A stretch of 64,000 bases of DNA from positions 28,682,801 to 28,746,800 of the forward strand of contig OX359247.1 of the NCBI GenBank assembly GCA_947179485.1. Reading direction: 5' to 3'. The notes under the pieces were generated by a model. That model was not told the DNA's origin, searched no databases, and saw only the letters and a program-made list of their open reading frames with translations. The position numbers were made by a program, and so were the translations under genes. This stretch comes from Allacma fusca. Taxonomy: Eukaryota > Arthropoda > Collembola > Symphypleona > Sminthuridae. Below are positions 1 through 19,027 of the stretch, piece by piece (within the stretch, counting starts at the first letter, position 1; each line of letters begins with the position of its first letter).

Positions 1-879
1 CTGCTCCCGTGCGCCGCTTAGTTTATCATTCTTGAGAACCAGTTTTCCATAAAACATTGCCCCAATTGTGACATGTACACTCTCTGTGAGAATTTTTTTG
101 CAAAATATTTTTTACCAGTAGTGTATCTCTCTCTCTCTCTCTCTCCTTGTCGTCAGCGTCAGCCCATTAGGACTGATAAATGTTTGATAAAATATCATAT
201 TACAGTCTGAATTGCTCGGTCCAACAACAATAGGAGAAGTAGGAGCAGCTGTCAAAAGATGTTTTTAGATTTAGTCCCAAGCAGTGCAGTACTACTATGA
301 GTGTGTGCTCGTGCTGTGGTATAGTAGCTGGAATTTGACCGGAGACAACCTCATTATTGTCTCGGCTCTAGAATGTGACACCTCCTCACTCCAATTGATA
401 TTTTCTCGGAATTACCAACAAGGCTCAAGACTACTTAGAAGTAATTAATTTTACTTTTTCCTCTCATTGTCAGACCCCAATAGAGTATAGTGCAATAACA
501 TCGAACACCAAACTCTGACGCATGCGGTACGGCTACATAGTACATTAGTATTAATTACAAACGATTGCATTGTGCATGCAAAAACCACAAGGAGCCGACA
601 TTACACTTGTGGTACATATGGAAGTGAAACATTTTTCAATGTTGGACTTGTTGCAGGAACTCGGTAGAGATAACCGTGGAAAATCACAAACCTTGTGAAA
701 GCCATTAGGTGGACTGCGTGTAAAAAAAACAAAGAAGAAACGTGAAGAGTGTGACCGTATCTGGGAAGATGCAAGTGTGTCCAAGAAGGATGACTGACAT
801 GAGTCGATGCAGCTGGTGAGGACTTTGATTACTAATTGTGAGTGTCAAATGTTACTGACGATTCTCAAGACACAAGGAA
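1..879. other. Upstream flank, no gene recognised
   Basis: AT-rich flank to the left of the first SMOC leader copy. It holds a short (TC)n tract near 126-146. The open frames are short and show no splice structure or family resemblance. If the exon at 981 is a real first exon, its distal promoter should lie here, but I see no TATA or initiator that I would defend. Confidence 0.5.
126..146. repeat. (TC)n microsatellite
   Basis: About ten uninterrupted TC units. Confidence 0.9.
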
Positions 880-980
880 GACAATTGCATGTGGTAGAAT
901 GTGGAGGACCTAGCGATATGGTTAGTTGTGTGCCTAGTGTCCTGATCATCCACAATTGTCCGGAGTGTTGATATTTAACG
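880..980 (+). promoter_or_regulatory. Leader/5'-flank, distal copy of duplicated SMOC exon 1
   Basis: This stretch aligns to 6970-7073. The two share blocks such as TTGCATGTGGTAGAATGTGG against TTGCATTGTGGTACAATGTGG, a GGAGTGTT block just upstream, and the ATGAAC start. It is probably 5' untranslated sequence and/or proximal promoter, kept along with the coding part of the exon in both copies. The transcription start is not visible. Confidence 0.5.
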
Positions 981-1088
981 ATGAACTTAGTCTGTCTATT
1001 AGCCACTTTATTTACAATGGATTCTATCATTGCCTTATCAATACCATATGTAGAGAGGAAGTCGTGGATCCGGCATCGTGCCAAAAGG
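981..1088 (+). CDS. SMOC: SMOC alternative first coding exon (distal copy), signal peptide
   Basis: Thirty-six codons open with MNLVCLLATLF, a hydrophobic signal peptide, and end in RHRAKR at an AGG|GTAATT donor in phase 0. The protein is 27/36 identical to the exon at 7074-7181, with no gaps, and nearly all differences are conservative (L/V, T/A, M/I, Y/H). The donor and following bases (GTAATTTCC) are also the same. The phase fits the shared exon at 7810. I infer an alternative first exon with its own promoter about 6 kb upstream; a recently dead copy would be expected to carry stops or a broken donor, and neither is present. Confidence 0.65.
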
Positions 1089-3598
1089 GTAATTTCCAAT
1101 ACAAATATTTTTTCTTATTATGTAACATTCCCAGTTCATTCATGTTTTCAGCTGTCCCAATTCTATTTATATGCTCTTCCATACTAAATTTATACACGTC
1201 TCTCTGATCAGGGTTATCCTCCCTCCTTGCAAGCCCGTTCCAAGGAATTGATTCCCTAGTATTTATTTGATTTGCAATGCACATCTCACACGATCTCACT
1301 TGATTTATGGGACGATTGAGTCCTGCTTGCGCAAAGCGTTTGAGAAAAAAGACAGTCAATTTTTATATATAGACACACTCACATGTTATGCAGGACGTGA
1401 CATTCCCTGTGAACCTGTTGTAGCGTAGTCACAGTCAGTGATTACTGTCTGTGTATGGAGAAATCTGTAGACAGGTGTTGAATTACACCTCTAATTTTTA
1501 AAGTAAACCTTTCCACAAAAATTATCAGAGACTGAAACGCAGAAAAAGGGATCTTTATACCAAGGTTAAACTCATATTTGGAAAATGTTCTCGGCTTGTA
1601 TAAGCATAAAGGGAATCCAAATTAGTGGTTGGGGGTGAAATTAACATTAATTTCCAAGACGGGAAAAAATAAAAGATGTTGACTCTTGTAATAGCACGGA
1701 CAGTAAATATGTAGTTACTTTAAAGAGTAAATTAACTCTAAGTCTGTACAAACGTCCGAGTGAACAAATACAGAAACCATGTGGATACTGTACAAGTAGA
1801 TAAGTACATACATGTTTGAGAACAGATAAAGTTCGTAGTGTGCACAAGATATAATGAAGCACATTATGATGCAGCAACTTTTCCTGCTTGAGAACTTTCA
1901 TTTTAATGCAGTTTCATTGTTTTTATACATGTTACAAGTATATTGCTTGCCTCATATTTTACGATATGAGTTGTATTATTTTAATTCTGGTTGTTCCTCC
2001 TAGTCAAGATTAATTTCCTATAAATAAAAGAACACAAGCCACAGGCGTCAATGGCTAACTCGACGTAATTGAAATGAGAGTTCTCAACAATGCTTGAGTA
2101 ATTTCTAGAGAATCTACAGAAAAAGGAAAATGGATTTTACTAGTACGATTGGTTTAACTACGTTGATGTCTGGCAAGACAGGTGTATTTCTTGTACCTAC
2201 TACAATACAACCCAATGAATTTTTTCTCAAGCTCTTGTAACAATAATATTCAAATGCGGAGATATGGCTAGGAGGAAAAAAAACAAGTTAATTAAGAACC
2301 AGTATACTTATCCAGATTCATGTTGATTTTTAATACCGAAAATGAAAAGGTAGTTTATATGATGCAGTTGATTTCGCAATAGATAAGGTCCGATGAGTGT
2401 ACTGATTAAAATCATAGGACTCCCCTGTCGTGTCTCATAGATACGATTGTTGTTTGCACACGGAGTTGCATCAACATCCTCAAAGAAGTCACATACTGTA
2501 TAGTCAGTTTGCGGTTAAGGGATCTGGCGGTTTTATGTTATTTCAGCAGCCTCATTAGTCAATATGGTAACTGGCACGTAGGCAAGGAACATGCCCAATG
2601 TTCCCGACAATAATGACAGATTTACAACTTGAATAACAGTCAGAGAAAAAAAAATGAAAGGAGGAATTTCCAGCCGATTCTCTAGAGCTTGTTTACATTA
2701 TTATTAATGTGGATGTCCATACATTGATGTTGCACTCGAAGGTCTCTGTGGTTTACTGTGGACAGGAATTCGCAGAGAGATGCAAACTTGTTAAACAGAT
2801 CAGTACTGCATTATTATCTCATGGTTGAACAGCTCCGAGAATTGTTTAGTCTCGAAATGCAATCATTGAGTGATGGAGTATGAAAAACTTTGCTCTTATC
2901 TCTCTTTCCTACAGTTCCTTCCTTTGTCTATCTGTTCCTGCCAAACAAAGTTTTTCAATTGAATTTACAAAGTTGTGGGATTTTTTTTTCCTGAGAAAGT
3001 TTTAACAACTAACCTTGTTTCTCTCACTCATCTCCCCACCCAAAATGGATTTTGATAGGAAAAAGTTATGGACAGACGTTCTCCCCCTCCCCCGTCCAAA
3101 AAAAAGTAGACATCCAAGGTGGATTTCGGGATGAATACTGTTTTTTTACGGCAGTGTAGTATTATTTATACACGTTATGTAATTGTGACTTTTGTGACGG
3201 ATTCCCAGTCCCTGGCATTCTACTATCTGGAGTTTCCAATGGGCTCTGAAATGTGTGTATTTATGGTAATATTCTGGAAACACATGGACTATGTGAGGTT
3301 AAGCCTGTTACTTTATATGATTACGTGCCGTGCATACATTGAGGGCATTTAATGGTAAATATGAGTAATAAAGTGCATGGATAGAGAGGAAAGTTGTAGC
3401 ACGCAGAGGAAGGCCCCCCTTCGATTTGAATGTCGGTGAATTCCCGACACCTGTGCGACCCGCAACACCTGTTTACCCTCTAGCATTTTCAATATATTTA
3501 TTTCTGTATGATAATATTATAAGGTCTACCTTGCTCTCTCATACATCTTGTCCATTTGCCAGCGTCCCTTCGCCTGGCTGTGTATGATTGAAGATTGA

Positions 3599-3652
<54 letters not shown>

Positions 3653-6600
3653 TACGGGAAAACGGTCATGACTCATTCTCTCTCTATACCATCACACCTA
3701 CAACAGACCATTAAACAGAGCCAATAGCACTGCCTACACTTTACACCTCCATCCAACAATCCTACCAAAAGCATAATCTTGCACTAAATATTATTTCTTA
3801 TTTCATTTTCTCCGCAGTAAATTCCCAGCAATCCCATACATAAATTTAGTTACATTTTTCTAATCTCAGTATCCTTTAAATAATCCTTCTTTTTTTGAGT
3901 TGGAGTAATGACTTGGAAACAAGAATTGCTTCATTAAGGTAGTGATTACAAATAATTCTAAACAACAATAATATTAGTACTTCCCCTGGTATCTGGAGAA
4001 TCTGAACAACTGAAGATCCATGTACAATTCATATCTTTTATATAATATTTAAGATCAATCTGTACATTAATGATGAGCCAGCTGAGCAAATCCAATATTA
4101 TTCATCATATCTGACAGTTTGTGTTATTCTGTAGTAATAAATATGAAACACGTGGAAGGAAATTGAAAACACAGTAGGTATCTACTGATAGCAATGATTA
4201 TTAATTGTTAATAGGACCACTGTGTATACTATGCCCATGAGTCCCTGACTTCCTAAAGCCGCCATGTGATAAATTACAAGTGGGAATTGCAAGATTAACA
4301 GATGAACTGGTCAAGTTAGGAATTTAGACCCGATAACTGGCTATGAAGGAGTTTTAGTGGGACTAATGGGATAGGAAAACATGCAAATTTTTATGGTTAT
4401 TGTTGCCAAAGCTGTCGAGGTAATTATGCATAAAATGCTGCTCTGCTCGTGGGGAATTCTTTTGTCGTACAGCTTTCAATATCTACTTAATAGTCCCCGG
4501 ATTTTCATTAAGGAAAGAGTGAACAAGTGATGCCTAATTTGGTGTATTAAAATTCCGTATGGTTGCATCTGCCACAGTACAGTAGGTAGAGGGTAACACG
4601 GTGATAGTAAGTTGAGGCTGCTCTGTTGATTGTGCACTTAAAAGTATTGATTGGATTTGGTGTTTCGTGTAGGAGCACAGACACGAATGCTCTTGGAATT
4701 CTCAGATGTTGTCCAAGTGCAGAGACAGGTCTGAAGAGTATGAATGGAAACAATGGCTGGAACAAATGCTTGAAATCCCATAGATTGATTTACCAAAGTT
4801 TACATGTTTTAATGGCGTATAATAACTGAAGAAAAAGTCAGGTGGACCCGGCCAAGTGTGTACAAAACAGTAGATTATATATGTAGATACTTAGAGCAAT
4901 TGAGTAGAATATACATATAGGGTCATAGTGGTAAGGACGTCTTAAGTGTAGGATGGTGTTGTAGAGAAAAAATCATGTTTAGTTTTTATGAAGGGCTCTA
5001 ACTATGCCTTCACCATATATGACCATACTTGAATTCCCATGAGCACTCCTTGTACTGAAGATTTGACGTACATATGTACATATGAGGTACATAAGAATGT
5101 TAAAGATTAAGGATGGAGCCTGAAAGTCTGGTGCGGTGAAAACGTGAGATTTGTATTCTCCTTTAGCAAGTGGTTTTACAATTGGTTATTAGGGGCACAC
5201 ACAGGTAAAGGTTAGGGCCTTCGTCATCACCAATGCTCTCCTGCACGTGGTCATTTTTTTTTTGAAATGCAGTTTGAACACCTGCCTACACATGCCTGGC
5301 CTGAACTTTTCACTTTTGAGATTTCTGGTCTCACGTCCAAGTAGCATTACGTCAAGCAGAACTAGACCCATGGGAAAATTAGATGGGACTTTTATAAATT
5401 CATAAAATATACATAAATTTCCAGCTGTATGGAGTCCGTTGAAGAAAAATATACTACTATTAAAAATTAAAAAGACTGAGGATTTTAATTATTCGAACAT
5501 TTTTAGAAAGAAGTGCACACTTGGGAACCTCCATTCACTAGGTACATTTACCTTTCAAGCTGTTAGGGAGTTCTGTCCTTATAAATCCCATGCACTTAAA
5601 AACCGTTAAATTGTTGTTTGAAGGAAAGATATTTCTATTTTTTTTTGTTGAAAGTATAGACGCTAAATTTACTCAAATCTTAGGTTAATATCCAAGTCCC
5701 TGTACATTTTTGGGGAAAGATTTGATTTTTCTGTCCTGACATGGTACAGGTGAATTTTTCTCATTGTTCCTTTCCTGTCCAGAGTAACATCTCATTTACC
5801 AAGTGGATGAGAATTTTCCAACGGGTGAGAAGAAAGTACCTTTTTGAGCTCCAGTATCATAAGTTTGGACTATAAACGGTACAGGAACATGAAATAGATT
5901 GAAAAACTAAACTTCTACACTTACATATATACTTTCTGGTTTAGAGTCCCTCTCCCTCTCTGTTGCTTCTATGTATATATATAATGACCAGAGAGGACTA
6001 ATATAAACTCTTGAAGCCTTCCTTATAGCGACACAATGAGCACTGGATGCTTCCCTTGAAGGATATATGGTGAACATGAAAATGAGTTTTAACAACTTGC
6101 GAAGGAAACCATAACTACTAGATATATAGTGGAAGGTATATCCCCTTAATAATATTAAAGACATTCCTCAAAGAAGGTTCATCCTCATAGAAATACCGGC
6201 TTGTTTTCCTACCTCCAATTCTTCACTGGATAGTGTATCTATGTACAACTCGAGGCAGTCAGAGAGGAGAAATCATAAAAGGGCTACTTGATTCTAGTCA
6301 AGTTGGTACTCCCGGTGTCAGTTCAGAATTTCAATATCACTGAGAATGTCTCAACTCGTGGGCTGTCCAGTGAACAAGATAAATTGAAATAGTTTCAGTA
6401 GTTCTGAGGTTCATAACATTTTTAGTATCCGTATAATAACTTCTTCCTATCTTTCCCAACAACTTGTACAGGTGGAATTTCCGGAAGTGAGGGTCACTAT
6501 ATTTTGACTCAGTGAAGTCCCCACCAAGGATTCTAAAACTTTCAACGTTCCCCAAAGTTTTTGACCTCCACAGTGAGTCCATGCACAGTTAGTGAAGATA

Positions 6601-6969
6601 GCTCCATTGAGAGTTTTTTTTTAGTTTTAGATCCTGAACATTCCCAGATGATTGTAGTGTTTTCAAAGCAGTCAATCAAACTTTAAAATATACAAATATA
6701 ATGTTTACTTCTTATTATGCTGTGCTGGTGATGGACGGGATTATTTTACTTACTGGATCATGAAAATATCCAAACGTTCCTTTTGACTTTAATTCTTTGA
6801 CGTAGATATTTATTGTTAGTTTAGCTCAGATTTTCTGACAGTTAGAACACTAGAGTAGTTGTGATGCATGGATTACAAACAATATTTTTTACGGAACTAC
6901 CTGTGTGCATGAGGCGACGGTTCTACTGAAAGTGTGTGTTGTGTGATTTACTATATTTCCCTGAAATGC
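1089..6969 (+). other. Intron between the two alternative SMOC first exons
   Basis: Nearly 6 kb of AT-rich sequence with no exon I can support. It contains a pure (GA)24 tract at 3601-3648 and several TACATATGTA-like words near 5070-5090. I searched in particular for a cysteine-rich Kazal/follistatin exon, which other SMOC genes have at this point, and did not find one. Confidence 0.5.
3601..3648. repeat. (GA)24 microsatellite
   Basis: Uninterrupted run of 24 GA units. Confidence 0.95.
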
Positions 6970-7073
6970 TAGTTTTGCATTGTGGTACAATGTGGTGGAC
7001 ATAGCAATATTTTCACGGGACTGCCTGGTATGTGCTCTTAATCAAAAACTGCCAGGAGTGTTTATATCTAAAG
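6970..7073 (+). promoter_or_regulatory. Leader/5'-flank, proximal copy of duplicated SMOC exon 1
   Basis: Homologous to 880-980 (see that entry). The ATG at 7074 is preceded by AAAG in this copy and by AACG in the distal one. Confidence 0.5.
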
Positions 7074-7181
7074 ATGAACTTGGTCTCACTACTAGCCGCT
7101 GTATTCGCAATTGATTCTATCATCGCCGTGTCAATACCTCATGTAGAGAGGAAGTCCTGGATACGGTACCGGGGCAAAAGG
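7074..7181 (+). CDS. SMOC: SMOC exon 1 (proximal copy), signal peptide
   Basis: The ATG opens MNLVSLLAAVFAIDSIIAVS, a plausible signal peptide with cleavage near residue 20, followed by a basic stretch ending RYRGKR. The donor AGG|GTAATT is phase 0. This ATG was chosen over the in-frame alternative start at 7032 because the upstream codons are not hydrophobic and because the distal copy starts at the same codon. Confidence 0.75.
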
Positions 7182-10100
7182 GTAATTTCCCCTAGATTTA
7201 TTTTTATTGTTTCACATATGTATGTACATATGTACTGCCTCTGCCTTTCGGTCCATCTTTCTCAGGCAGTTTGTCAACTGTCAGGGTAGGGACTACCTAC
7301 GCAATATTTTGTCCATTACTGTTTTCCTCCCGGCTCACGGGTTGTTTTATTCATGGTCATGGTGCATAAAAATTTCATTTCTCAAAGCATCACAAATCAA
7401 AACAATGCCGAAAGAAACCCAATATTTAGAAGGGATGCCTAATGCACCGTATTTTCCGGCAGAATTGACAATAGGGAACTTCCAAGAGCTTTGATTAAAA
7501 TCAAAAGGCTGCCCTGTCTTTTACTAGATATGATGTATGTAGGGCTGGCCATAAATTACACTATGAGAGCTCATACAGACCAGACACAATTTTCATATAT
7601 AAAATCCTGTGTGTGTACATGTGCAACAGCTTGCATGTAAATACCATGTATAATTATAGAGTATAGATCTATCTATACTTATATAATTATATGTGCATAT
7701 ATAAATATATACCAGGCGATTGTTGAAGCATTGAAGCACGGAGAAAATTAATTTTACGAGAGAAATATGCAAGGAAATGACGGATGGGAATTCTATTGTG
7801 TTTTAAAAGGAATGGCCAGGCCCAGACTGCTTGTCGGCAGATGAGGACGAAGGCCTCAGCTCGACCAACAGAACGAGGGATTGTGCTGCAGAGCGTGTCG
7901 AGAAACTGGGTGTATTTCAAAGGACCGGCACCCGAGAGTTCATACCAAATTGTCGAGCTGATGGATCCTATGTTCCGATTCAGTGTCATAACTCAACCAG
8001 GTCTTGCTGGTGTGTCACCGAGACAGGGAGACCCATCCCGGGCACGTCTGTGCTCTACACTTCCGGTTCGAGAAGACCCAACTGCGCAAAGTACCATCCT
8101 AGAGCTAAGTCCGCCACGAAGAGAAGGTCATCTCAGGGTCGGAAGAACAGAAAATGTAAAGCGGGTTATCTATAATAATTAGATATGTTTACATGATTTA
8201 TATTCCTTCCAAAAGGAACTGTAGTAGTAGTATTCCTCATACTAGCTTAACTCTAACTTTTCATCAATGTTGACATAATTGAGACAAATGTCGGGGAAGA
8301 TGTCCATGTAAATCTAATTTGATTTTTGTAGCATGCAATCATGCTGACAGAGCACAATTCAACCTAGCACTCATAAAAACTTTCCGAGGAGAATACGGGC
8401 GCTTAAAATCCTTCTCATCTTCTTTCACTGGTAAGTTATTCCAGAGACTATCTTTGTTTTCAGGGGCATTGATATGCATTCCACTGGAAATGACGAGGGG
8501 TAATCGTGTGAACGTGAGAGTATTATGTATGTATGTATGTATGGGAAATGTGAAGTATGAGCAGCCCATTCTTATATTATGTATGTGTGAGTATATAATG
8601 TAAAATAAATGACCATTGTCGGAAATAAAATCGGAGCATTTGTTGGATTCAAAGGATACGGGGAGATGGGCGGAGAGGATGAAGTATTATCATGGAAGTT
8701 TGATCATTTGGATAAGAACAAAGACAATTTTTTAGAGAGGAATGAGACAGTGATTCTAAAAAGATTGGTCAAGCAGCAAATCCAACCTCGTCAATGTGCC
8801 AAAACATTTATATCTTTCTGTGCCAATGGCGACAAAAAAATCACCAAGAAGGAATGGGTGGATTGCCTCAAGATTGGATCTATGGAGAACCGTAAGTGAA
8901 ACATTTCCAGTGATTTAATCTTCAAATGACCATGATTCTCTAATAGTTTTCTCACTCATTCTCAGTCTCATAAAGTTCCAAGTCATAACTTGCAATAAAG
9001 TATAACGTAATGCTAGATTTGAAGTTACAGTCATTTAATACTCATATGTTCAAGTTGTTGTTTTTGAATGAGCCAAGTAAGATATTATTAAGTAGTCCTT
9101 GTTGACAAAGCGTGTGTTCTGCTTTAAGCCTAGTATATGGGCTCACATTTATGGAGTTGAGGGATCTTCTACGTACTACAATATATATGTAGATATTTAT
9201 ATATATATATATATATATATATAGGATATAGAACAGTAGTAGTCACTATAGACGTCATCCTGCACGTCGTGCACAATGTGTAGGTAACATAGAGGCATCA
9301 GTAGGAGAGAATGTGCAGATTATTGATGCATATAGGGAGGAGTAAGGAATGGATCCAGCAAATTGTTACTGCCGCTATAAAGGGTGATGAGAGGCAATAA
9401 ATATGAATTGATTTTGATGAAAATTAGAATTTAAACGAATGATGACAATTTGCACTTGACGATGACAGATGTAATAAATTACAATTTTAGTATCTTGTAA
9501 CAAGTTTGGTATGACAGCCGAGCCAGTTTTTGAAGGAATTTTAAGTGAGAGCGTTGACACTTTCAGAGCACTGTGTTTCATGTCTGATTTGTTTTGAAAG
9601 AAAAAAAAATAGTTTTCGTTCTTGTAAATGTGCGCTTACTCTCGAAACATTTTCACACATTAGACATGAGAGATAGGAACAATATAAAAAAATTGCTCGA
9701 TATGACATTTGCGTATGCAATAGCTTCCTTGTTGCACTTTGTAGTGCCCTTTGATACATTCAATTCCTTGGTGGATTCAGGCTCAACCCGAGGTATGCAC
9801 CCATTCCAACTTCTCAAACAAGGTAATTTTCGTGTATTATTCATACATTTTGGGACTGCATTTCTCTCTCCCTTCACCGCTCTTTACTCACCATTTCACA
9901 CTTCTTCTTCTTCTTCTTCTTAGTACTTGTCTCTCAACTTTACTGATACTCCTTGTTAAATTATAGACCTACAAACTATATACAGATAGTAGAGGTGAGC
10001 TTATATTCCTCACACCTGCATTAATCCGATTGCTTTTGCTTGGGCTTGAATTTATTGTTCAAGTAATGACACTTTATTCTATCCTAATCTTCCTGCTCTA

Positions 10101-12101
10101 ACCAAACATGGTCAGGGAAGGCCATGTCAGGTGTTGTTACTATCCTTTGCTTCATTGAACTTCTACCGCTCCATTGTTTTACTTTTTGAAAGGTTGCAGG
10201 TGCAAAATGTAATTGATGCTTTTGCTTACAGTATGGGCTTTTTGCTTCGGTTTGTTTTTTTTGGTGTCATTTAATTCTCACAACTGGCAAAACATCAGTT
10301 ACTGCTGAGGGAATTATTAGAAACTAATTATTGTTAATGTCGGGCAGACGGAACTTTCCTATTAGTTACAAACGTATATGGGCTTCAAATTTCAAATATG
10401 GCATGTCTTTAAAATGGGCAAAATATCTGAACAAGGTATATAGGGTCTGGCATGGTTAAACCTTTTGCTAATACTTGTACAATAATAGCTTGACATGGAT
10501 GTGTATCTACTTATAAGTAATTATATAGTATGTAATAATTACCTTTATGTACTATTTTAACTTTAACGCATAGAATTTCCAAGTTATTAATTTCCAGCTC
10601 CTTCTGGTCTTTCTATTTATTTCAAATGGAGCTTGTAATACGAACGTGGATGTGGAAGGAGCGCAGTGTCTTAATTATTATAGTCTCTTTATCTCTCGGG
10701 GTTCTCGGGATATCGTAGATAGCATATTTATATAAAGATACTTCAGATGTGCAAAGGATTCCATCAAGTTTTCCACACATGCTGGGAGATATACAGAGGT
10801 TGAGTTGGAGTTAGTCGTCTCTAAATTGACTTGTGTATGTATCTGAAGCGTCCTGGTGAAACTTTTTAGCAGTGTTTACTTTTTGGGGTGTTTATCTAAG
10901 CACGTTTTTTTTTATTTTCCTTCAGGCTCATCACTTCCACACGGAGATTTTTCACCCCCTCTCAGTCCAAACTCCCGAAAGGACTCGGATACTCGGGAGG
11001 TTTCCAACTGCTGGACGGATAGACAATCTGCATTAGCCAGCAGGAAATCTGGATCCAATGAATCCGTGATTATTCCAGAGTGTAATCCTAGCGGACTCTA
11101 CCAAAGAACTCAGTGTGCTCAAGGTAAACAAATATGTGTTTTGAGTGAGGTTGCCATCGTGGTGGAAGTAACTCCTTCCCTATAAGCAATCATCTATGTT
11201 TGTTTTCCAGGGAAAGCATACTGTTGGTGTGTGTTTGAAGAGACTGGTCTGCAAATACCCTTAACGGTCGTCATTAACTCCACTCCTGACTGCGATAAAA
11301 AAGTTGCTGCGTACAAATCCATGAAAGGTATGGTGTAATGCTTTGAAATCTTGCTAATTATTTATGACTCCTCTCTATTTATCTTGATGTATCTAAATGG
11401 TTGATTGTGAGTGAAACTTGTTCCTATTTTTTTAAGGATGTTCGGGGCCGAAGAAGACGAAGTTCGTAACGGATTTAATGGCTACCCTATCCAAGAGTAT
11501 GCAAGAGGCTCTTAGCCAAGGGAAGAAAAGGTAGAATAGATTTAGTAGCTCTATAACTAAATCCATATTTAAAATTGTTCTTAAAAGTAGTAGTATTGAG
11601 AGTATGGGGTTTAACAAGGAAATAACTTAGAGGGATTTTTAATTAACTCCATTGGTTTTTAATATTTTTGACCAGACTTCCAGGCGACTTGGAGCACATG
11701 AATCCTCACGAGCAAGTTGCAAGATGGCATTACAATCGTTTGGACGCTAATAATAATGCGGTGAGTTTCTTTAACCTTATAATTTAGTCAATTTTGAAGG
11801 CTGTAGCCAATAAATATGAGCATTCATGATTGAATTCCTATTGTTGCAGATTCTCGAGCGAAAAGAATGGAAAGTATTTAAAAATGAGACTTCAGGGGAC
11901 CGTAACTTAAGAAGATGTGGGAAGAAATTGGGGAGAGTATGTGATGTGAATCAAGACCGAAAGATTACGCTGACAGAGTGGCTAGATTGTCTAGGAATTA
12001 AATCTTCGGAACAATCACAATCTTCCTCTCGCAAACCAGTGCATAGATCCAGCAGTCCAAGGACTGGGAAGAATCCCTTTACAGCTATTTTAAAACAATG
12101 A
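7074..12101 (+). CDS. SMOC: SMOC-family secreted modular calcium-binding protein (whole gene)
   Basis: Extracellular matrix protein of the SPARC/SMOC family; Drosophila magu (pentagone) and vertebrate SMOC1/2 modulate BMP/Dpp signalling at the cell surface. Coding exons are 7074-7181, 7810-8155, 8332-8430, 8655-8891, 9781-9822, 10926-11123, 11211-11327, 11437-11530, 11676-11760 and 11850-12101. Every junction is GT-AG and all phases agree, giving about 525 residues: signal peptide (1 to about 20), TY1 (61-128, CWCV core), a basic linker 129-151 that may bind heparan sulfate, an EC module (153 to about 259), a tail with HPFQLLKQ, TY2 (306-371, CWCV core), a second EC module (384-489) and a tail with NPFTAILKQ. 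Vertebrate SMOCs have an N-terminal follistatin/Kazal domain and a single EC module; here I see no Kazal domain and two EC modules. The first exon has a second copy at 981. The family call is secure; the exon 2 start and exon 5 left edge are the least certain points. Confidence 0.92.
7182..7809 (+). other. SMOC intron 1 (proximal), no exon seen
   Basis: About 630 bases between the signal-peptide exon and the TY1 exon. It contains TATGTATGTACATATGT words and AT-rich tracts near 7600-7710. Translating all forward frames gives no six-cysteine Kazal pattern. Confidence 0.5.
7810..8155 (+). CDS. SMOC: SMOC exon 2, first thyroglobulin type-1 domain
   Basis: A whole TY1 domain in one exon: DCAAERV opens it, then FIPNCRADGSYVPIQC, the CWCV core, and a final cysteine at protein residue 128 (six cysteines in all). 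A lysine/arginine-rich linker follows. The start at 7810 uses acceptor TTTTAAAAG, the only nearby acceptor whose phase (0) matches exon 1; acceptors at 7820, 7826 and 7841 are phase 1 and would need an unseen exon upstream. The donor is AAAAT|GTAAAG, phase 1. Residue 43 is an extra unpaired cysteine before the domain. Confidence 0.85.
8332..8430 (+). CDS. SMOC: SMOC exon 3, first helix of internal EC module
   Basis: Acceptor TTTTTGTAG and donor ACTG|GTAAGT, phase 1 on both sides. It encodes CNHADRAQFNLALIKTF, the amphipathic first helix of a SPARC-type EC module, and is equivalent to the CSGPKKTKFVTDLMATL helix encoded at 11437. Placement between TY1 and TY2 shows that the internal region is a full EC unit and not only an EF-hand pair. 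Confidence 0.75.
8655..8891 (+). CDS. SMOC: SMOC exon 4, internal EF-hand pair
   Basis: Acceptor GGATTCAAAG and donor AACC|GTAAGT, phase 1 on both sides. It encodes LSWKFDHLDKNKDNFLERNE, where residues 204-215 form a canonical 12-residue EF loop (D, N, D, E, E at positions 1, 3, 5, 9, 12). The second EF-hand, FCANGDKKITKKEW, is one residue shorter than its C-terminal equivalent and lacks the first Asp, so it is probably not a normal calcium site. The paired cysteines (232, 240, 255) match those of the C-terminal module. Confidence 0.85.
9198..9223. repeat. (AT)n tract in SMOC intron
   Basis: About 13 uninterrupted AT units, preceded by a shorter AT run at 9181-9188. Confidence 0.9.
9781..9822 (+). 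CDS. SMOC: SMOC exon 5, small tail exon
   Basis: A 42-base exon, phase 1 on both sides, encoding STRGMHPFQLLKQ. It echoes the protein's C-terminus (GKNPFTAILKQ), which argues that it is real. The donor is CAAG|GTAATT. A longer form starting at 9745 after acceptor CACTTTGTAG is also in phase and open; I cannot decide between them. Splicing exon 4 straight to exon 6 would also keep frame, so this exon could be optional. Confidence 0.6.
9901..9920. repeat. (CTT)n microsatellite in SMOC intron
   Basis: About six to seven CTT units. Confidence 0.9.
10926..11123 (+). CDS. SMOC: SMOC exon 6, linker and first half of TY2
   Basis: Acceptor TTTTCCTTCAG, donor CAAG|GTAAAC, phase 1 on both sides. A Ser/Pro-rich linker (PPLSPNSRKD) is followed by NCWTDRQSALASRK and VIIPECNPSGLYQRTQC, the first three cysteines of the second thyroglobulin type-1 domain. 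TY1 is encoded by one exon, whereas TY2 is split by an intron just before its CWCV core. Confidence 0.9.
11211..11327 (+). CDS. SMOC: SMOC exon 7, second half of TY2
   Basis: Acceptor TGTTTTCCAG, donor AAAG|GTATGG, phase 1 on both sides. It encodes GKAYCWCVFEETGLQIP and the last TY2 cysteine in STPDC. Confidence 0.9.
11437..11530 (+). CDS. SMOC: SMOC exon 8, first helix of C-terminal EC module
   Basis: Acceptor TTTTTTTAAG, donor AAAAG|GTAGAA; phase 1 in, phase 2 out. CSGPKKTKFVTDLMATL matches the start of the vertebrate SMOC EC domain (pattern C..GKK.EFI..LL). Confidence 0.88.
11676..11760 (+). CDS. SMOC: SMOC exon 9, start of EF-hand 1
   Basis: Acceptor TTTTTGACCAG, donor AATGCG|GTGAGT; phase 2 in, 0 out. 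It encodes HEQVARWHYNRLDANNNA, equivalent to the vertebrate SMOC segment before EF-hand 1. The EF loop (residues 437-448) is cut by the next intron and has Asn at position 5. Confidence 0.9.
11850..12101 (+). CDS. SMOC: SMOC exon 10, EF-hand 2 and C-terminus
   Basis: Acceptor ATTGTTGCAG, phase 0, ending in TGA at 12099-12101. It encodes VCDVNQDRKITLTEWLDC, a canonical EF-hand 2 with flanking disulfide cysteines, then a Ser/Arg-rich tail ending NPFTAILKQ. Confidence 0.92.
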   Translation: MLERKEWKVFKNETSGDRNLRRCGKKLGRVCDVNQDRKITLTEWLDCLGIKSSEQSQSSSRKPVHRSSSPRTGKNPFTAILKQ

Positions 12102-15100
12102 CTTTGAATGGTAGGAAAAAAGGATGGAAGTGTGTTCCAGATTATTTCTGGGAGAGCCCTACATAAATGACACGCTCTTCCTGTACTTGCTCCCTCCCCG
12201 TGCCGATAACCTCAAGCTTGTGAATATTATAATGCAAAATTTTGTAAATCCATAAACGTGATATAAATCAGAGAGTTTCCGTGTAGTTGGATTGTCCATG
12301 CTTTGCATATCAAAATGCCATCCTGCAATGTAAGAATAGAATACTTGTTAATTTATATGGGTAGATAAGGTTCCTTGGATAGTGTCACTTTTGTAACGTT
12401 TAAAACTGATGATTTATAAATGAGTTTTACAAGGACTCTTTTGGTAGTGAACTGTTTGCTCCGTAGTTGTTTACTCTTTTTTGAACTCCTTTCTCTGATT
12501 ACTCTTTAATAATAATAATTAAAGCAATTTGAGAGGCCGGAAAATCCTATTCCTCAATTAATCTGTAGTGATTAGCACGCATCCGTAATGTTTCCCCTTC
12601 AGGCCCATAAGTTAACAGATTTAAGATATTTTGCAAAAAATGTTTTAATTCTGGAAATTCAAGAACTTGAGGTGTTGATTTCAAAACAGAAAGTGCGACA
12701 TGACTTGACGTAATCTTCTCTTCGTAAATATTTTAGGAGAGGGAGGTGATCCACTTTTAAGTTATCTCAAGCAAGAGTACCGAAGAATGTTTAATATTCT
12801 CACAAATTATTCATGTTACTTCAAAATAACGAAGTACCAATTTATTCTACGATCTTTCTAAAATTTGTTTCAGTAGATGTCAATCCGAAAGCAAGTGTGG
12901 AATTTCGTATGGATAATTTGACTTATTGCTACTATGTATCAACAAGTGTTGAATTATTAATGATTTATTCAAAGTCATGTTTAATGTATAGCTTTTAGTA
13001 CGAGGCCCCGTATCTCGAGACTTTTGTTATGAAAATGATTTATTATAAATACAATGTGACCTCAAATAACCAAAATGTATTACGAAGTTGTCAACAAAAT
13101 TCCTAAGATAAACAGAGCAACCACCTAAAGATCAGGGTGCAACCAAAAGATTAAAGCAGATTCATATTCTATCAAAAGTCAAGTGAAAAGGTTAAGTGTA
13201 ACAGAATAGCCACATATCTTCAATGGTTTTTCATCTGCAACTGGTATCTGTACAGTTTATACCCCCTTTGAGTATTTTATTGATGCGGGCAGTTTTATAG
13301 TTTACAGCACTTATGAATCATAAGCCGATATAATTCAAATTCAAGTAATTGCCTAATTATTGTTGACGGAAGATATTTTGCGGAAGAAACTTGAGTGCCA
13401 TCTGTCGCTCAGTATTTTATACTGAATTAACAATCACAAAAATTACACCTACGTTTATTGAATAAACTGCCAGGAAATGATATTTCTACAAATAAAACAC
13501 CTGCTCCATATTGTCATACTATTTTGAACATGCAATTTGTGTGGAAGGAAAATGAGAAACCGTTGGTAGAAATAATTTTCAGCTCAAATTATTCACAAGC
13601 TTTTTCAACTTCTCATTTTAAATAATTCTACAGCCATTCAACAGCTAAACGTCGACAAAACCCGTACAAGCTTTCTATAAGCTATAAGAGTCCTGAAGAC
13701 TACAATCATTCGAGAAATGAAATTACACAAAAAAGAACTAGAAATTTTGAAAGTCCAAAATGACTACTTCCTTTGATTATGATTCTATTATCAAGCATTT
13801 CAAATTATTTGCACGAAAATTCACTTCTCGTTAAAAAGATACATTTCAGTATGGCTAACATTTTGCGTGGGCTAAGAAGCTTATGACTCAAACTTGATTT
13901 AGACCCATTGAAAGTATAATATACGGTCCGCACATACATAGTTTAGAACTGTAGTAATTTAAATTTGAATAAATAAACTGAGCTGGAATGAATATAATTG
14001 AAAAAATATTATTGGAAAAAAGTTGTGGACAGAAGTTTAGTAATGCAGAATTATCGATGAAAAAACGATTGTAACAAAATTTGCAATTCAAAACAGGAAC
14101 GACAGCTGGAGTTCCGCAGAAAGAAGGAAAATCCCTATTATGATAATGAAGGCACAAAATTACATAATGTAAGTTGGTAACTTACTTGGTAGCATTTTAA
14201 AATTTCTTCTATAGACCGTGTTACGGGTCATACTCCTAAATTAAGGTCTCCAATAATCAATCCTCCAAAGCTAACAAATTCTATTAACTGATTTTGACTG
14301 CTGTGACCTTGCAATTTGCTCTCACATTTAGTCATTTGAGTCATCGAGACTGTCCTTATGTATTATTACGGCTTGCACCCATTAATAATTGAGTAAGTAT
14401 TTCCTCAAGATTCTTCCAATTTCATTTCAATGAGCTGTGACAATGAGTGGCAATGTCAAATCCTGGGTCATATTTTTACACCAACAAATACATAACAACC
14501 CTATAAATCCGCCATGCGCGTATCATCTACATACTAATAGAAAAGAACCAACGAAAGGCATGAAGAATTTAAATCCGAGAGCTTTATTACGAATAAATTC
14601 GAAATGAATTTTCCCTAAAACTACTATTTACACGATAATACTAAATCCTTATGCCTAGTTACATACACACATAAAAATCACAGTTTTTGCAAAGAAACGG
14701 AATTTTAAAATTGTACGTTTACAACCTTTGTTTGAACTTAAATTCACTTTTTGAACTTTGCGTAATGATAAATAATAGCGGCATTATTATCATACATTAC
14801 TTACAATTGCCAGAATACTAACAACATATTTTGTTCCAGTACGAGATTGCATTTCTAAGCATTACAAACTTTCAGTATAGTGGTAGACTTCACATAATTT
14901 TTTTAAATTTTATAGACTACATGCACAAAACTCTCACAAATATGGATGGAAACGATTGAGATGACATTTTAAAGTGTTTGTTTAATTCATAGACATCTTG
15001 AGACGGAATTCCAAGTAGATGCTTGTGAACGACTCTAAATCCTATGTTTTAGCATTCATAGTTTCTAAAAGTATAGTTGAACTCTCTGGTCAGAGTTTAA

Positions 15101-15728: not shown

Positions 15729-16727
15729 CTAGGAATAATAAATTAGTAAATACCAAGGTCATACGTACATATTAATACCTATGCATTCGTATTATACACT
15801 GCATTGATAATAATGTGGTAATGATTCGATACAGAGGATCTGTCTTACGGGATTAAATCCGCCGGAGTCAAACAAAGGTTTATGAACTCTTCCGGATTTT
15901 TGACGAGCACTTGCGACACGCTGATGAAGAACCTTTAAATTAATTTAAGGGGTAGAAATTGTAGCTTTTATTAAATTCTGAACATCAAGCGTACGTGTAC
16001 TAAGGTGTAATTATTTGAATTAGGAGAATTTATTTAAAAATAATTGGGAGCAAAGTAGTCACCATATTTCTCCTTTCGTTAGCTTGAAGCACCTTCTCTT
16101 GAATAGCTTCATGGGTTACGGGAAGAGCTTCATCTACTTGATCTTCAACCATTTTCCTTAAGCGTCGAGGGGGATGGCGCTTGATTAAAGATACCCCTCC
16201 AGTTTCCTCTCCTTCCTCCGCGGGTACTTCAAAAGCTACAGGTGCTGCTGGTACAGAAGGATCACAGATCATGACGGATTACTTAAGCCAAAGTAGCTCA
16301 CAGGAAATTAGTAAGAGAGATTAAACTATACTCTGTAGTAGAGAGAGAGAGAGAGAGACAGGATTAAGGTCTTACTGCTACGTCGATTCTGATTAACTTC
16401 CGAATCATCGTTAGTATTCTGGTCGAGGAAACCTATTCGGCCGCTGGGCTTAAGAGGAGGTAATTTTCCCAAGGGATTATTTGTAACTCCATTTTCAGCC
16501 CCATTTTGATACTTCTCATGAGCGGGTATTGTGCTGGCTTCCGACATTGTTGAATTTATGGATTCTTTACATTTTCCGTCTTCTTTGTTGTGATTATCGG
16601 CTATGTCATCGACTTTCCCGTTGGATCTACTTCTTGATTTATTTCTCTTCCCTTCCTTGACCTGCTGCTCGTTTTGGGGGGAGCTGACGGAATTGATCAC
16701 TTCACCTCGGGAACTTCCGCAACCCAT
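15663..16727 (-). CDS. STMND1: Stathmin-domain-containing protein 1-like (whole gene)
   Basis: Minus-strand coding exons 16376-16727, 16063-16247, 15849-15932 and 15663-15728 join with matching phases (1, 0, 0) and GT-AG borders to give 228 residues. The N-terminus MGCGSSR fits the N-myristoylation pattern (Gly2, Ser6) with a palmitoylatable Cys3. Residues about 20-117 are polar and low in hydrophobics. Exon 2 carries SLIKRHPPRRLRKM and then THEAIQEKVLQANERR, which resembles the stathmin-family helix (EEIQEKLEAAEERR type). Exon 3 has QRVASARQKSGRVHKP and exon 4 ends SSAPDYL. The MGCG start, the PP-RL-K motif and the stathmin-like helix in that order are as I recall them in vertebrate STMND1, a little-studied protein; that is my basis for the name. 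Stathmins bind tubulin; whether this protein does is not shown. It converges on SMOC. Confidence 0.6.
15849..15932 (-). CDS. STMND1: STMND1-like exon 3
   Basis: Phase 0 at both ends; donor TCCC|GTAAGA. Two acceptors keep frame: TTTAAAG (start 15932) and the more pyrimidine-rich TTCTTCATCAG (start 15917). It encodes RVASARQKSGRVHKPLFDSG. Confidence 0.55.
16063..16247 (-). CDS. STMND1: STMND1-like exon 2 (stathmin-like helix)
   Basis: The acceptor is a CAGCAG tandem (NAGNAG): the exon may start at 16247 or 16244, which adds or drops one residue without changing frame. The donor ATATG|GTGACT is phase 0. It contains VSLIKRHPPRRLRKM and a charged helix ending QANERR. Confidence 0.6.
16341..16358. 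repeat. (GA)9 in STMND1-like intron 1
   Basis: On the coding (minus) strand this is a TC tract inside a 128-base intron and may serve as its polypyrimidine region. Confidence 0.85.
16376..16727 (-). CDS. STMND1: STMND1-like exon 1 (myristoylated N-terminus)
   Basis: Starts at the MGCGSS methionine at 16727 and not the in-frame upstream Met at 16787, because myristoylation requires glycine directly after the initiator Met and the upstream stretch reads like untranslated sequence. The donor AGCA|GTAAGA is phase 1. The segment is rich in Asn, Ser, Lys and Glu and is probably disordered. Confidence 0.6.
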
Positions 16728-19027
16728 GTCTGACTCTGGACTTGGGCTCTGGAACATATGTGTTTTCAGAAAAAAAGCACTCACCATTATTACCTGGGAT
16801 GCGTGACATACCAGAATAAAATCCTAGACTCATAAAAATATCTTGATTATATTTGTTTTGCTCAAAGATGCTTCCGTTGTAATCCAATAAGGATTTATGG
16901 CTAGTGAAGTTTACCCCGTGTCTGGGCCATTTCTCTGGATCTAATCAATACATGTCCGATATAGTTTCAACTAATTAGACCTGGCTTCACTTTTTTTTTC
17001 CTCCTTCCTTTTGCTCTGCTCCACTTACGCTAATTTCAGCTGATACTCTCATCCCCGTGCGAAAAGTTACCATATGGATAGGTTACCATTCAGGTAGAAC
17101 CCGAGATTTGAAACAATAAAGACACTAGACTCATTCCTGAACTTTTCCTGACCCCAGAAGTCATTGTCTAACTTTTTCTCATCCCACCACATTGATTTTA
17201 GCTGGAGGGGAAGTAAATGTCATGGACTCAACGTCAGCCGTATAATTATTACAGAATTACTTACTATTGAATTTATTTAATTATTGTGAAATCCCATATA
17301 GACTTCCCGATACTCTATAATTAAATTAGTCATTAAGTGTGAGGAAAGCGTGAGTTTTGCACGCATGTGGAACATTTACTGTAATATTATTATTACAGGA
17401 GCCCTACTTTTCAACCATTTTGACCTAAAATGTTTTTAGAAGCATTGGAAATAAGATCTTAATTTTATACTATACTCAATTCGGCACTGCACATTTATTA
17501 CCTACATATAAATAAAATGATGGCTGGGACAAAGTCCCAGAGTCCATAGTTACAGTGAAATAAGTCTGGTATTTATTGATTGTAGTAATAGCTTTCACTT
17601 TCTTGCAGTCGGAGAAAATATGTACATTTTACTTACATATGTATGTGCATATTATTGATACATACATGTATACCATAAATTTCCCACGGAACAGACCCTG
17701 CAAAATTACTGTACAAAAATACAGGCTCCACAATATCCATCCCGTGATTTCCAACTTTAGTACGACGTCACTTAACTCTTGGATTTAAGAGACAACGATC
17801 TCTACCTGTCAAAATCGGCTTAGAAACTTTCTACTATAATGACTTCATAAATGACATAATTTTTAAACATTCAAAGGAAATGTCCCTACAAGTAATTTTT
17901 TTATTTGGACTCATCCCCTTCAATTCGATTCACTTAATGTTTTTCAAAGTTCAGTGAAAATGCTGCTCCATTCACGTTATTGCAGAATCAACATTTTTTA
18001 ATATATTTAAAAAAAATTACACAACCAGGAGATTATTGCTATCAGGTGCTATTGACTACACCTAATGTGCTTACTAATCGAATCACGTGTTTCAGTCAGA
18101 GGAAATCATGTCCCACTACCTATTACTTGCATGAGATACGATTGTAAGGGGTTCTGTAAACTTCAAAAACTATAGGGTTTTTTATCATTTCGTTTACATT
18201 TTTACAGATGTGCTAGTTACATACGTAGATTCTACTATTTTATAATATACACAACGTGAGAGGCATCGGCCTAGCTAATACATCCCAATCCCAATGGAAG
18301 CGTTCCGCAGGATTTGTCATAAATGCAAGACCATGCATTTTGCAACGTCAAGCTAATGACAGATAAACTCTGAACCCAGCAATACTATGAACTAGTTTTA
18401 AACCAATGAACGTAAAAAAAACATACATACATGACAAAAATGTAGGACAAATAAGGACCTGAAAAGATCCAATCTCCTGACCAACTTGAGATTTGCCCGG
18501 CAGGTCCGTAAATATACGTATGTACACAGAATAGTGGAAGATAAGGACTAGAGTAAAAATACGGCTGAGAATTTATTGTGTATACGCTTAAGTAAAAGTA
18601 CGAGTCTACGACGAATTAAATTTGTTGACTCTTGTACATCCAGAACTGGAACTATATGGATTTGTGGGAGTCCAACTCTGTACCATCAATGACTATCACC
18701 TTTGCATGTTTGCAATAAACAAAATAAACCTTGAGATGACAATTTCTTAGAACCACACAGATTGAAGATAATTTTTTATTGTTTTCCTTCACCTTCACTC
18801 CCACCCGCGTGCAAATGCCAATCCGATTTGTAGCACACTAATGGATCCTAATAAAAAAAATAAAAGGTAATCCTTTTGTGTGAACACAAACACTCGTACA
18901 CACTGGTCTATGGGGAAAAAAAGGGGAGATAAGAATCCTCCTGTGCCGTCCGCTCCAACTTTACGTAATAATAAATTAAATACTCAGCAAGCCGTTTTTC
19001 CCTTAAATTTAGCTCACCACTCGGTTT

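What the first reader, a model, noticed from the sequence alone, without database searches (positions are those of the whole stretch)
880..7200. SMOC signal-peptide exon duplicated in tandem 6 kb apart, leader and donor included
Seen directly: 981-1088 and 7074-7181 are gap-free homologues (27/36 residues identical, mostly conservative changes), share leader blocks over about 100 bases upstream, and have the same AGG|GTAATTTCC donor. Both are phase 0 and can splice to the same exon at 7810. Inference: two alternative promoters or first exons that give the same mature protein with different signal peptides, a way to split tissue or stage control without changing the product.
Basis: partly seen in the sequence, partly recalled or inferred. 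Interest (0 to 1): 0.8.

Follow-up and report, generated by a model that had tools for sequence, protein, structure and literature searches.

The report
Springtail SMOC duplicated signal-peptide first exons
A springtail gene for a secreted growth-factor regulator (SMOC) carries two old, intact copies of its first coding exon 6 kb apart, probably two alternative starts for nearly or exactly the same secreted protein; it is a good new example of a known arrangement, still without RNA proof.

Summary
In the springtail Allacma fusca (species inferred), exon A (981-1088) and exon B (7074-7181) are gap-free homologues (27/36 residues, 88/108 bases) inside a shared block of about 225 bp (77% identity, E 2e-50) with a common leader and donor. 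They are the only two copies found in the 393-Mb assembly. Both fit in phase 0 onto exon 7810-8155 of one SMOC/Pentagone-type gene ending at 12101. The copies differ mainly at silent sites (dN 0.12, dS 0.63; ω=1 rejected); selection on both is favoured, but the test against one neutral copy is only suggestive. Orchesella SMOC carries the same PYxExKSWI peptide after its leader, so this is the ancestral first exon. The deposited A. fusca protein has neither signal peptide. Alternative first exons with separate transcription starts remain the best reading, but no RNA was available. "Same mature protein" is conditional: the copies differ at three positions after the likely signal cleavage, and products become identical only if the RxKR site ending both exons is cut. 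The kind is known (IgLON 1a/1b). Extra: a four-codon upstream ORF in both leaders and a 27-mer once in each first intron.

The parts
890..980 (+). Leader of copy A (5'UTR and/or core promoter, inferred)
   Evidence: Aligns with 6981-7073; 890-919 is 26 of 30 identical, 958-980 is 18 of 23
899..913 (+). Four-codon upstream ORF in leader A (MWRT-stop)
   Evidence: Same place and length as 6990-7004 in copy B; function not tested
981..1088 (+). First coding exon, copy A: signal peptide and basic segment ending RAKR
   Evidence: donor AGG|GTAATTTCC
2403..2429 (+). 27-mer in the first intron after copy A, shared with 7492-7518
   Evidence: 23 of 27 identical, 31.9 bits vs maximum 31.0 in 100 Markov nulls; only these two places in the window for a pattern written from them
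6981..7073 (+). Leader of copy B
   Evidence: Aligns with 890-980
6990..7004 (+). Four-codon upstream ORF in leader B (MWWT-stop)
7074..7181 (+). First coding exon, copy B: signal peptide and basic segment ending RGKR
   Evidence: donor AGG|GTAATTTCC
7492..7518 (+). 27-mer in the first intron after copy B
7810..8155 (+). Common second coding exon (thyroglobulin domain 1); begins EWPGPDC right after RxKR
   Evidence: splice model; Pfam Thyroglobulin_1
8332..12101 (+). Remaining eight coding exons: 8332-8430, 8655-8891, 9781-9822 (or 9745-9822), 10926-11123, 11211-11327, 11437-11530, 11676-11760, 11850-12101
   Evidence: agrees with deposited protein P0001; alternative acceptor 9745

Best explanation
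One SMOC/Pentagone-type gene with two homologous alternative first exons. A segment holding leader, first coding exon and donor (perhaps also part of the first intron) was duplicated in tandem long ago. Each copy is inferred to start its own transcript. A transcript from A would splice 1088 to 7810 and remove B inside a 6.7-kb intron; one from B would splice 7181 to 7810 over 0.6 kb. Each exon supplies a signal peptide and a short basic segment ending in RxKR exactly at the exon junction. If a furin-type protease cuts there, both transcripts give the same mature protein starting EWPGPDC, so the duplication mainly divides control of when and where this secreted protein is made. Shown: homology, intact frames and donors, coding-type substitution pattern, orthology of the exon to Orchesella. 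Inferred: separate transcription starts, processing, division of expression.
For: Homology E 2e-50 and identical donors; two places only in the assembly; common in-frame acceptor and full SMOC frame; dN 0.118 vs dS 0.629, Fisher P 0.0009; omega 0.22-0.24, omega=1 rejected with 2dlnL 9.2 and 8.4; 9 changed residues against 13.1 expected, P 0.018, and 50% of 20,000 random placements would carry a stop; Orchesella PYTETKSWI matched by both copies, 0 of 100,000 shuffles as good for either; leader blocks changed at 9 of 53 bases against 11 of about 26 silent sites, P 0.017, blocks chosen after seeing the alignment; the best AG of each leader scores 3.0, within the background.
Against: No transcript, cap-site or second-haplotype data were reachable. 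Only 36 codons: the model with one copy neutral is worse by just 2dlnL 4.3 or 3.5. No TSS or promoter was identified. Three of the gene's nine real acceptors score below 3.0 themselves, so the weak leader AGs do not exclude internal-exon use. The deposited protein uses the copy-A donor but in another frame and does not use copy B. No springtail relative with two copies could be examined.
Confidence: 0.65

Rival explanations
1. One copy is a relic: only A or only B is used, and the other is a decaying duplicate that is still open.
For: No RNA evidence for either; 36 codons give little power; one-neutral model not firmly rejected (2dlnL 4.3 and 3.5). Copy B has lost the Tyr shared by copy A and Orchesella.
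Against: Both frames and donors intact with dS 0.63; low dN/dS; the one-neutral model needs the other copy at omega near zero; leader blocks conserved as well.
Confidence: 0.2
2. The copies are mutually exclusive internal exons behind a shared, unseen 5' untranslated exon, chosen by splicing and not by promoter.
For: Leader AGs exist (best score 3.0 in each leader; one directly before the B start codon at 0.3), and three of nine real acceptors score lower than 3.0.
Against: The best AGs of the two leaders are not at matching places; the one that is (914 and 7005) scores -2.9 and 0.9; background 95th percentile is 4.3.
Confidence: 0.12
3. The exon-1 segment is not removed: the two transcripts give SMOC with slightly different mature N-termini (IPYVERKSWIRHRAKR or IPHVERKSWIRYRGKR), and this N-terminal peptide has a function. 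This can hold together with alternative starts, so its odds are not exclusive of the best explanation.
For: The KSWI stretch is the part conserved with Orchesella and has lower dN (0.08, against 0.15 for codons 1-19). RxKR is absent at that place in Orchesella.
Against: Both copies keep RxKR exactly at the junction, and only 3 of those 16 residues differ.
Confidence: 0.35

Closest known systems
IgLON genes Lsamp, Ntm, Opcml with alternative promoters 1a/1b (PMC5288359, passages)
   Same: Two first exons encoding alternative signal peptides joined to common exons; that paper states that the processed polypeptides have identical N-termini
   Different: There the two promoters are shown by isoform-specific expression; here only anatomy. 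Here the two exons are clear tandem homologues and end in a processing-type site; homology between 1a and 1b was not examined by me
Chelicerate sDscam 5' cassettes, with clustered protocadherins as the vertebrate parallel (PMC4835542, passages)
   Same: Tandem duplicated 5' cassettes, each preceded by a promoter, spliced to constant exons
   Different: There the variable exons encode Ig domains of the mature protein and diversify it; here one exon with signal and short basic segment
Human tandem duplicated exon substitution events (PMC9741552, passages)
   Same: Homologous tandem exons swapped between isoforms; 40 of 236 events are N-terminal
   Different: Those are annotated from transcripts; here no transcript is known
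SMOC / Pentagone (PMC5360445, passages)
   Same: Two thyroglobulin domains and two EC domains, with the extra EC between the TY domains as described for Pent
   Different: No N-terminal follistatin-like domain found; signal-peptide exon duplicated

Membership tests
SMOC / Pentagone | 1-2 thyroglobulin type-1 and 1-2 extracellular calcium-binding domains (as put in the abstract of PMC10464977, seen in the listing) | tested here: met
   Pfam Thyroglobulin_1 in 2 stretches and SPARC_Ca_bdg in 2 stretches; best named relatives are SMOC proteins
SMOC / Pentagone | N-terminal follistatin-like domain (SMOC and Pent, PMC5360445); not part of the wording in PMC10464977 | tested here: not met
   No Kazal/follistatin match at E<=0.001 in the spliced protein; four insect FS stretches by tblastn against 10 kb upstream plus the first 13 kb of the window gave best E 0.12, on the thyroglobulin exon
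SMOC / Pentagone | Secreted, modulates BMP signalling, binds heparan sulfate proteoglycans | not testable with these tools
   Only a leader-like hydrophobic N-terminus seen
Alternative first exons with alternative signal peptides (IgLON-like) | Two first exons each encoding a signal peptide in frame with common exons | tested here: met
   (hydropathy only; no signal-peptide predictor available)
Alternative first exons with alternative signal peptides (IgLON-like) | Two transcription starts used | not testable with these tools
   No RNA or cap data; leader acceptor scan inconclusive
Alternative first exons with alternative signal peptides (IgLON-like) | Identical mature N-terminus after processing | not testable with these tools
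   Depends on cleavage after RAKR/RGKR; the motif is present in both copies
Tandem duplicated exon pair | Homologous exons in tandem, same phase, both intact | tested here: met

The most novel reading that the evidence does not exclude
A whole 5' control cassette was duplicated and kept: leader with a four-codon upstream ORF, signal/pro-segment exon with a conserved KSWI peptide, donor, and a 27-mer element in the first intron. The two cassettes now divide the expression of a BMP-pathway modulator, while a furin-type cut exactly at the exon junction erases the choice from the mature protein, so that two divergent exons give one product through protein processing.
Probability: 0.25. Interest if true: 0.6.

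Novelty: new member of a known kind. Interest (0 to 1): 0.4.

Why it matters
If both exons are used, this short locus shows how control of a secreted signalling modulator can be divided by duplicating only the start of a gene, with the product held constant by proteolytic processing. It also exposes a deposited gene model that lacks any signal peptide, and it points to a conserved N-terminal peptide of collembolan SMOC whose function I could not name.

Tried and rejected
Dispersed repeat: not supported, the assembly search found only the two copies. Second, degraded SMOC gene behind exon A: tblastn of the spliced protein (E<=10) found no other SMOC piece between 1116 and 7073. A third copy in the 10 kb before the window: best match there E 8.1. 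Transcripts or relatives carrying the exon: a search with exon A plus the second exon gave 3 proteins, none carrying the first-exon peptide; a search with the two exon frames had 9 candidates, none at E<=10. Wider alignment of the flanks: upstream, the best match (23.8 bits) is within the null (mean 23.5); in the introns only the 27-mer exceeds it.

In print: searches sought duplicated or alternative first exons with signal peptides. Their listings showed no springtail or SMOC case, but searches listed only 15 of 261 and 10 of 58 papers, and the library lacks most subscription journals. PMC12758981 and PMC5896119 were opened for passages only: the first mentions exon duplications of a wasp serpin, the second an upstream alternative first exon of GNAS similar to part of exon 1.

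Not completed: whether the 27-mer is a dispersed repeat in the genome, and whether the assembly holds a SMOC paralogue; the genome search did not complete.
Full report
WHAT WAS CHECKED. Exons A (981-1088) and B (7074-7181) are both 108 bases, open and in phase 0. They match at 88 of 108 bases and 27 of 36 residues without a gap. Local alignment of the surroundings gives one significant block, 890-1112 against 6981-7205, 173 of 225 columns identical, E 2e-50. Identity in the 30 bases just 5' of the block is 20%, and 31% at intron bases 25-60. Within the leader it is patchy: 26 of 30, 9 of 18, 13 of 20 and 18 of 23. Both donors read AGG|GTAATTTCC. A search of the window's own assembly with 881-1100 found two places, the copies themselves.

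WHERE IT IS. The assembly has 392,743,791 bases and the window lies on a contig of 66,084,411 bases. The best protein match is Allacma fusca, 100% identical over 92% of the query. The published A. fusca assembly has 392.8 Mb and a scaffold N50 of 66.1 Mb (PMC10427803, passages). The species is therefore inferred to be A. fusca, a springtail (Collembola, Symphypleona, Sminthuridae).

THE GENE. Nine exons from 7810 to 12101, with either first exon in front, give a 525-residue frame ending in a stop. It has two thyroglobulin type-1 and two SPARC-type EC stretches, in the order TY-EC-TY-EC. Drosophila Pentagone is described as having an additional EC between its two TY domains (PMC5360445, passages). 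A second acceptor at 9745 would lengthen the fifth exon by 12 residues and matches Orchesella dallaii better (P0004). The deposited A. fusca protein P0001 agrees with the model from PDCLSADE onward but has another N-terminus. Its residues RGSRGSGIVPKG come from 1054 onward in another frame of exon A, up to the copy-A donor; STDTNALG... comes from 4674; PDCLSA from 7822. It has neither signal peptide and looks like a prediction artefact (inference). Its MQL start is probably at 807-815 (read by eye).

IS IT UNDER SELECTION? Between the copies there are 11 silent changes at 25.8 silent sites and 9 amino-acid changes at 82.2 sites: dN 0.118, dS 0.629, Fisher P 0.0009. A pairwise codon likelihood gives omega 0.22 (F3x4) or 0.24 (equal frequencies) and rejects omega=1 (2dlnL 9.2 and 8.4). 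Random placement of the same 20 substitutions changes 13.1 residues on average (observed 9, P 0.018) and makes a stop in 50% of 20,000 trials. A model with one copy neutral since duplication is worse by 2dlnL 4.3 and 3.5 and pushes the other copy to the lowest omega tried. Constraint on both copies is favoured, not proven; 36 codons are few. Two leader blocks (9 of 53 bases changed) evolve more slowly than silent sites (11 of about 26), Fisher P 0.017; the blocks were chosen after seeing the alignment.

IS IT THE TRUE FIRST EXON? SMOC of Orchesella dallaii (P0004) begins with a hydrophobic leader followed by HPFPYTETKSWIHQ, and O. cincta (P0003) has the same stretch. PYTETKSWI matches exon A (IPYVERKSWI, score 42) and exon B (IPHVERKSWI, score 37); 0 of 100,000 shuffles of either exon did as well. 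Folsomia candida (P0002) shows no such stretch. The exon thus predates the split between Orchesella and Allacma, and its conserved part lies after the signal peptide. Whether the duplication is equally old cannot be told: the Orchesella proteins show one first exon each, and no symphypleonan relative could be read at this place.

HOW IT MOST LIKELY WORKS. Each exon would give a signal peptide, with cleavage near ALS|I or AVS|I (recalled -3,-1 rule; hydropathy; no predictor was available), then 16 residues ending RAKR or RGKR at the exon junction. R-x-K-R is the furin-type motif (recalled). If it is cut, both mature proteins begin EWPGPDC; if not, they differ at three positions. With two starts, exclusive use needs no splicing regulator: A transcripts remove B inside the 6.7-kb intron, provided B has no used acceptor. 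With a small matrix made from this gene's nine acceptors, the best AG in each leader scores 3.0. The real acceptors, each left out in turn, score -0.8 to 11.6, three of the nine below 3.0, and the background 95th percentile is 4.3. Internal-exon choice is therefore less likely but open.

EXTRA PIECES. Both leaders hold a four-codon upstream ORF at the same place, MWRT-stop at 899 and MWWT-stop at 6990; leader A also has an unshared 17-codon one at 918, and each leader has one further unshared short one. Each first intron holds one copy of a 27-mer (2403-2429 and 7492-7518; 23 of 27 identical; 31.9 bits against a maximum of 31.0 in 100 Markov nulls). A pattern written from these two copies occurs nowhere else in the window with up to 3 mismatches. 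These suggest, weakly, that the duplicated unit was larger than the 225-bp block and held regulatory sequence. Whether the 27-mer is a repeat elsewhere could not be checked; the genome search did not complete.

COMPARISON AND NOVELTY. IgLON genes use two promoters whose first exons encode alternative signal peptides, with identical processed N-termini (PMC5288359, passages). Tandem 5' cassettes with their own promoters are known in chelicerate sDscam, with clustered protocadherins as the vertebrate parallel (PMC4835542, passages). In a human set of 236 tandem duplicated exon events, 40 swap N-terminal stretches (PMC9741552, passages). The springtail case is a new member of this known kind. Its added features are the clear tandem homology of the two signal exons and a processing-type site exactly at the junction.

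VERDICT. The regulatory reading is plausible and untested. Interest is moderate.

Noticed in passing
window 807-7822: The deposited A. fusca protein P0001 has an N-terminus read from exon A in another frame plus a piece at 4674, with no signal peptide; likely a gene-model error.
   Followed up: partly
window 9745-9822: Two in-frame acceptors for the fifth exon (9745 and 9781), 12 residues apart; the longer form matches Orchesella dallaii, the shorter one P0001, and O. cincta P0003 lacks the segment.
   Followed up: partly
related proteins P0001-P0004; window 1-13000 and L003: The four named collembolan SMOC proteins carry no Kazal/follistatin domain in the listing, unlike nearly all other rows (P0062 and P0064, both fragmentary, also lack it), and no such exon was found in 23 kb around this gene. 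Possible loss in springtails; some N-termini are unreliable.
   Followed up: partly
L003:505-3745, minus strand (about 6-9.5 kb before the window): Pieces of a protein kinase gene on the opposite strand, head to head with the SMOC gene (Pkinase in 2 of 3 ORFs scanned, one of them below Pfam's cut-off).
   Followed up: partly
window 16326-16823, minus strand: An open frame containing MGCGSSRGEVINSVSS..., which looks like the start of another protein.
   Followed up: no
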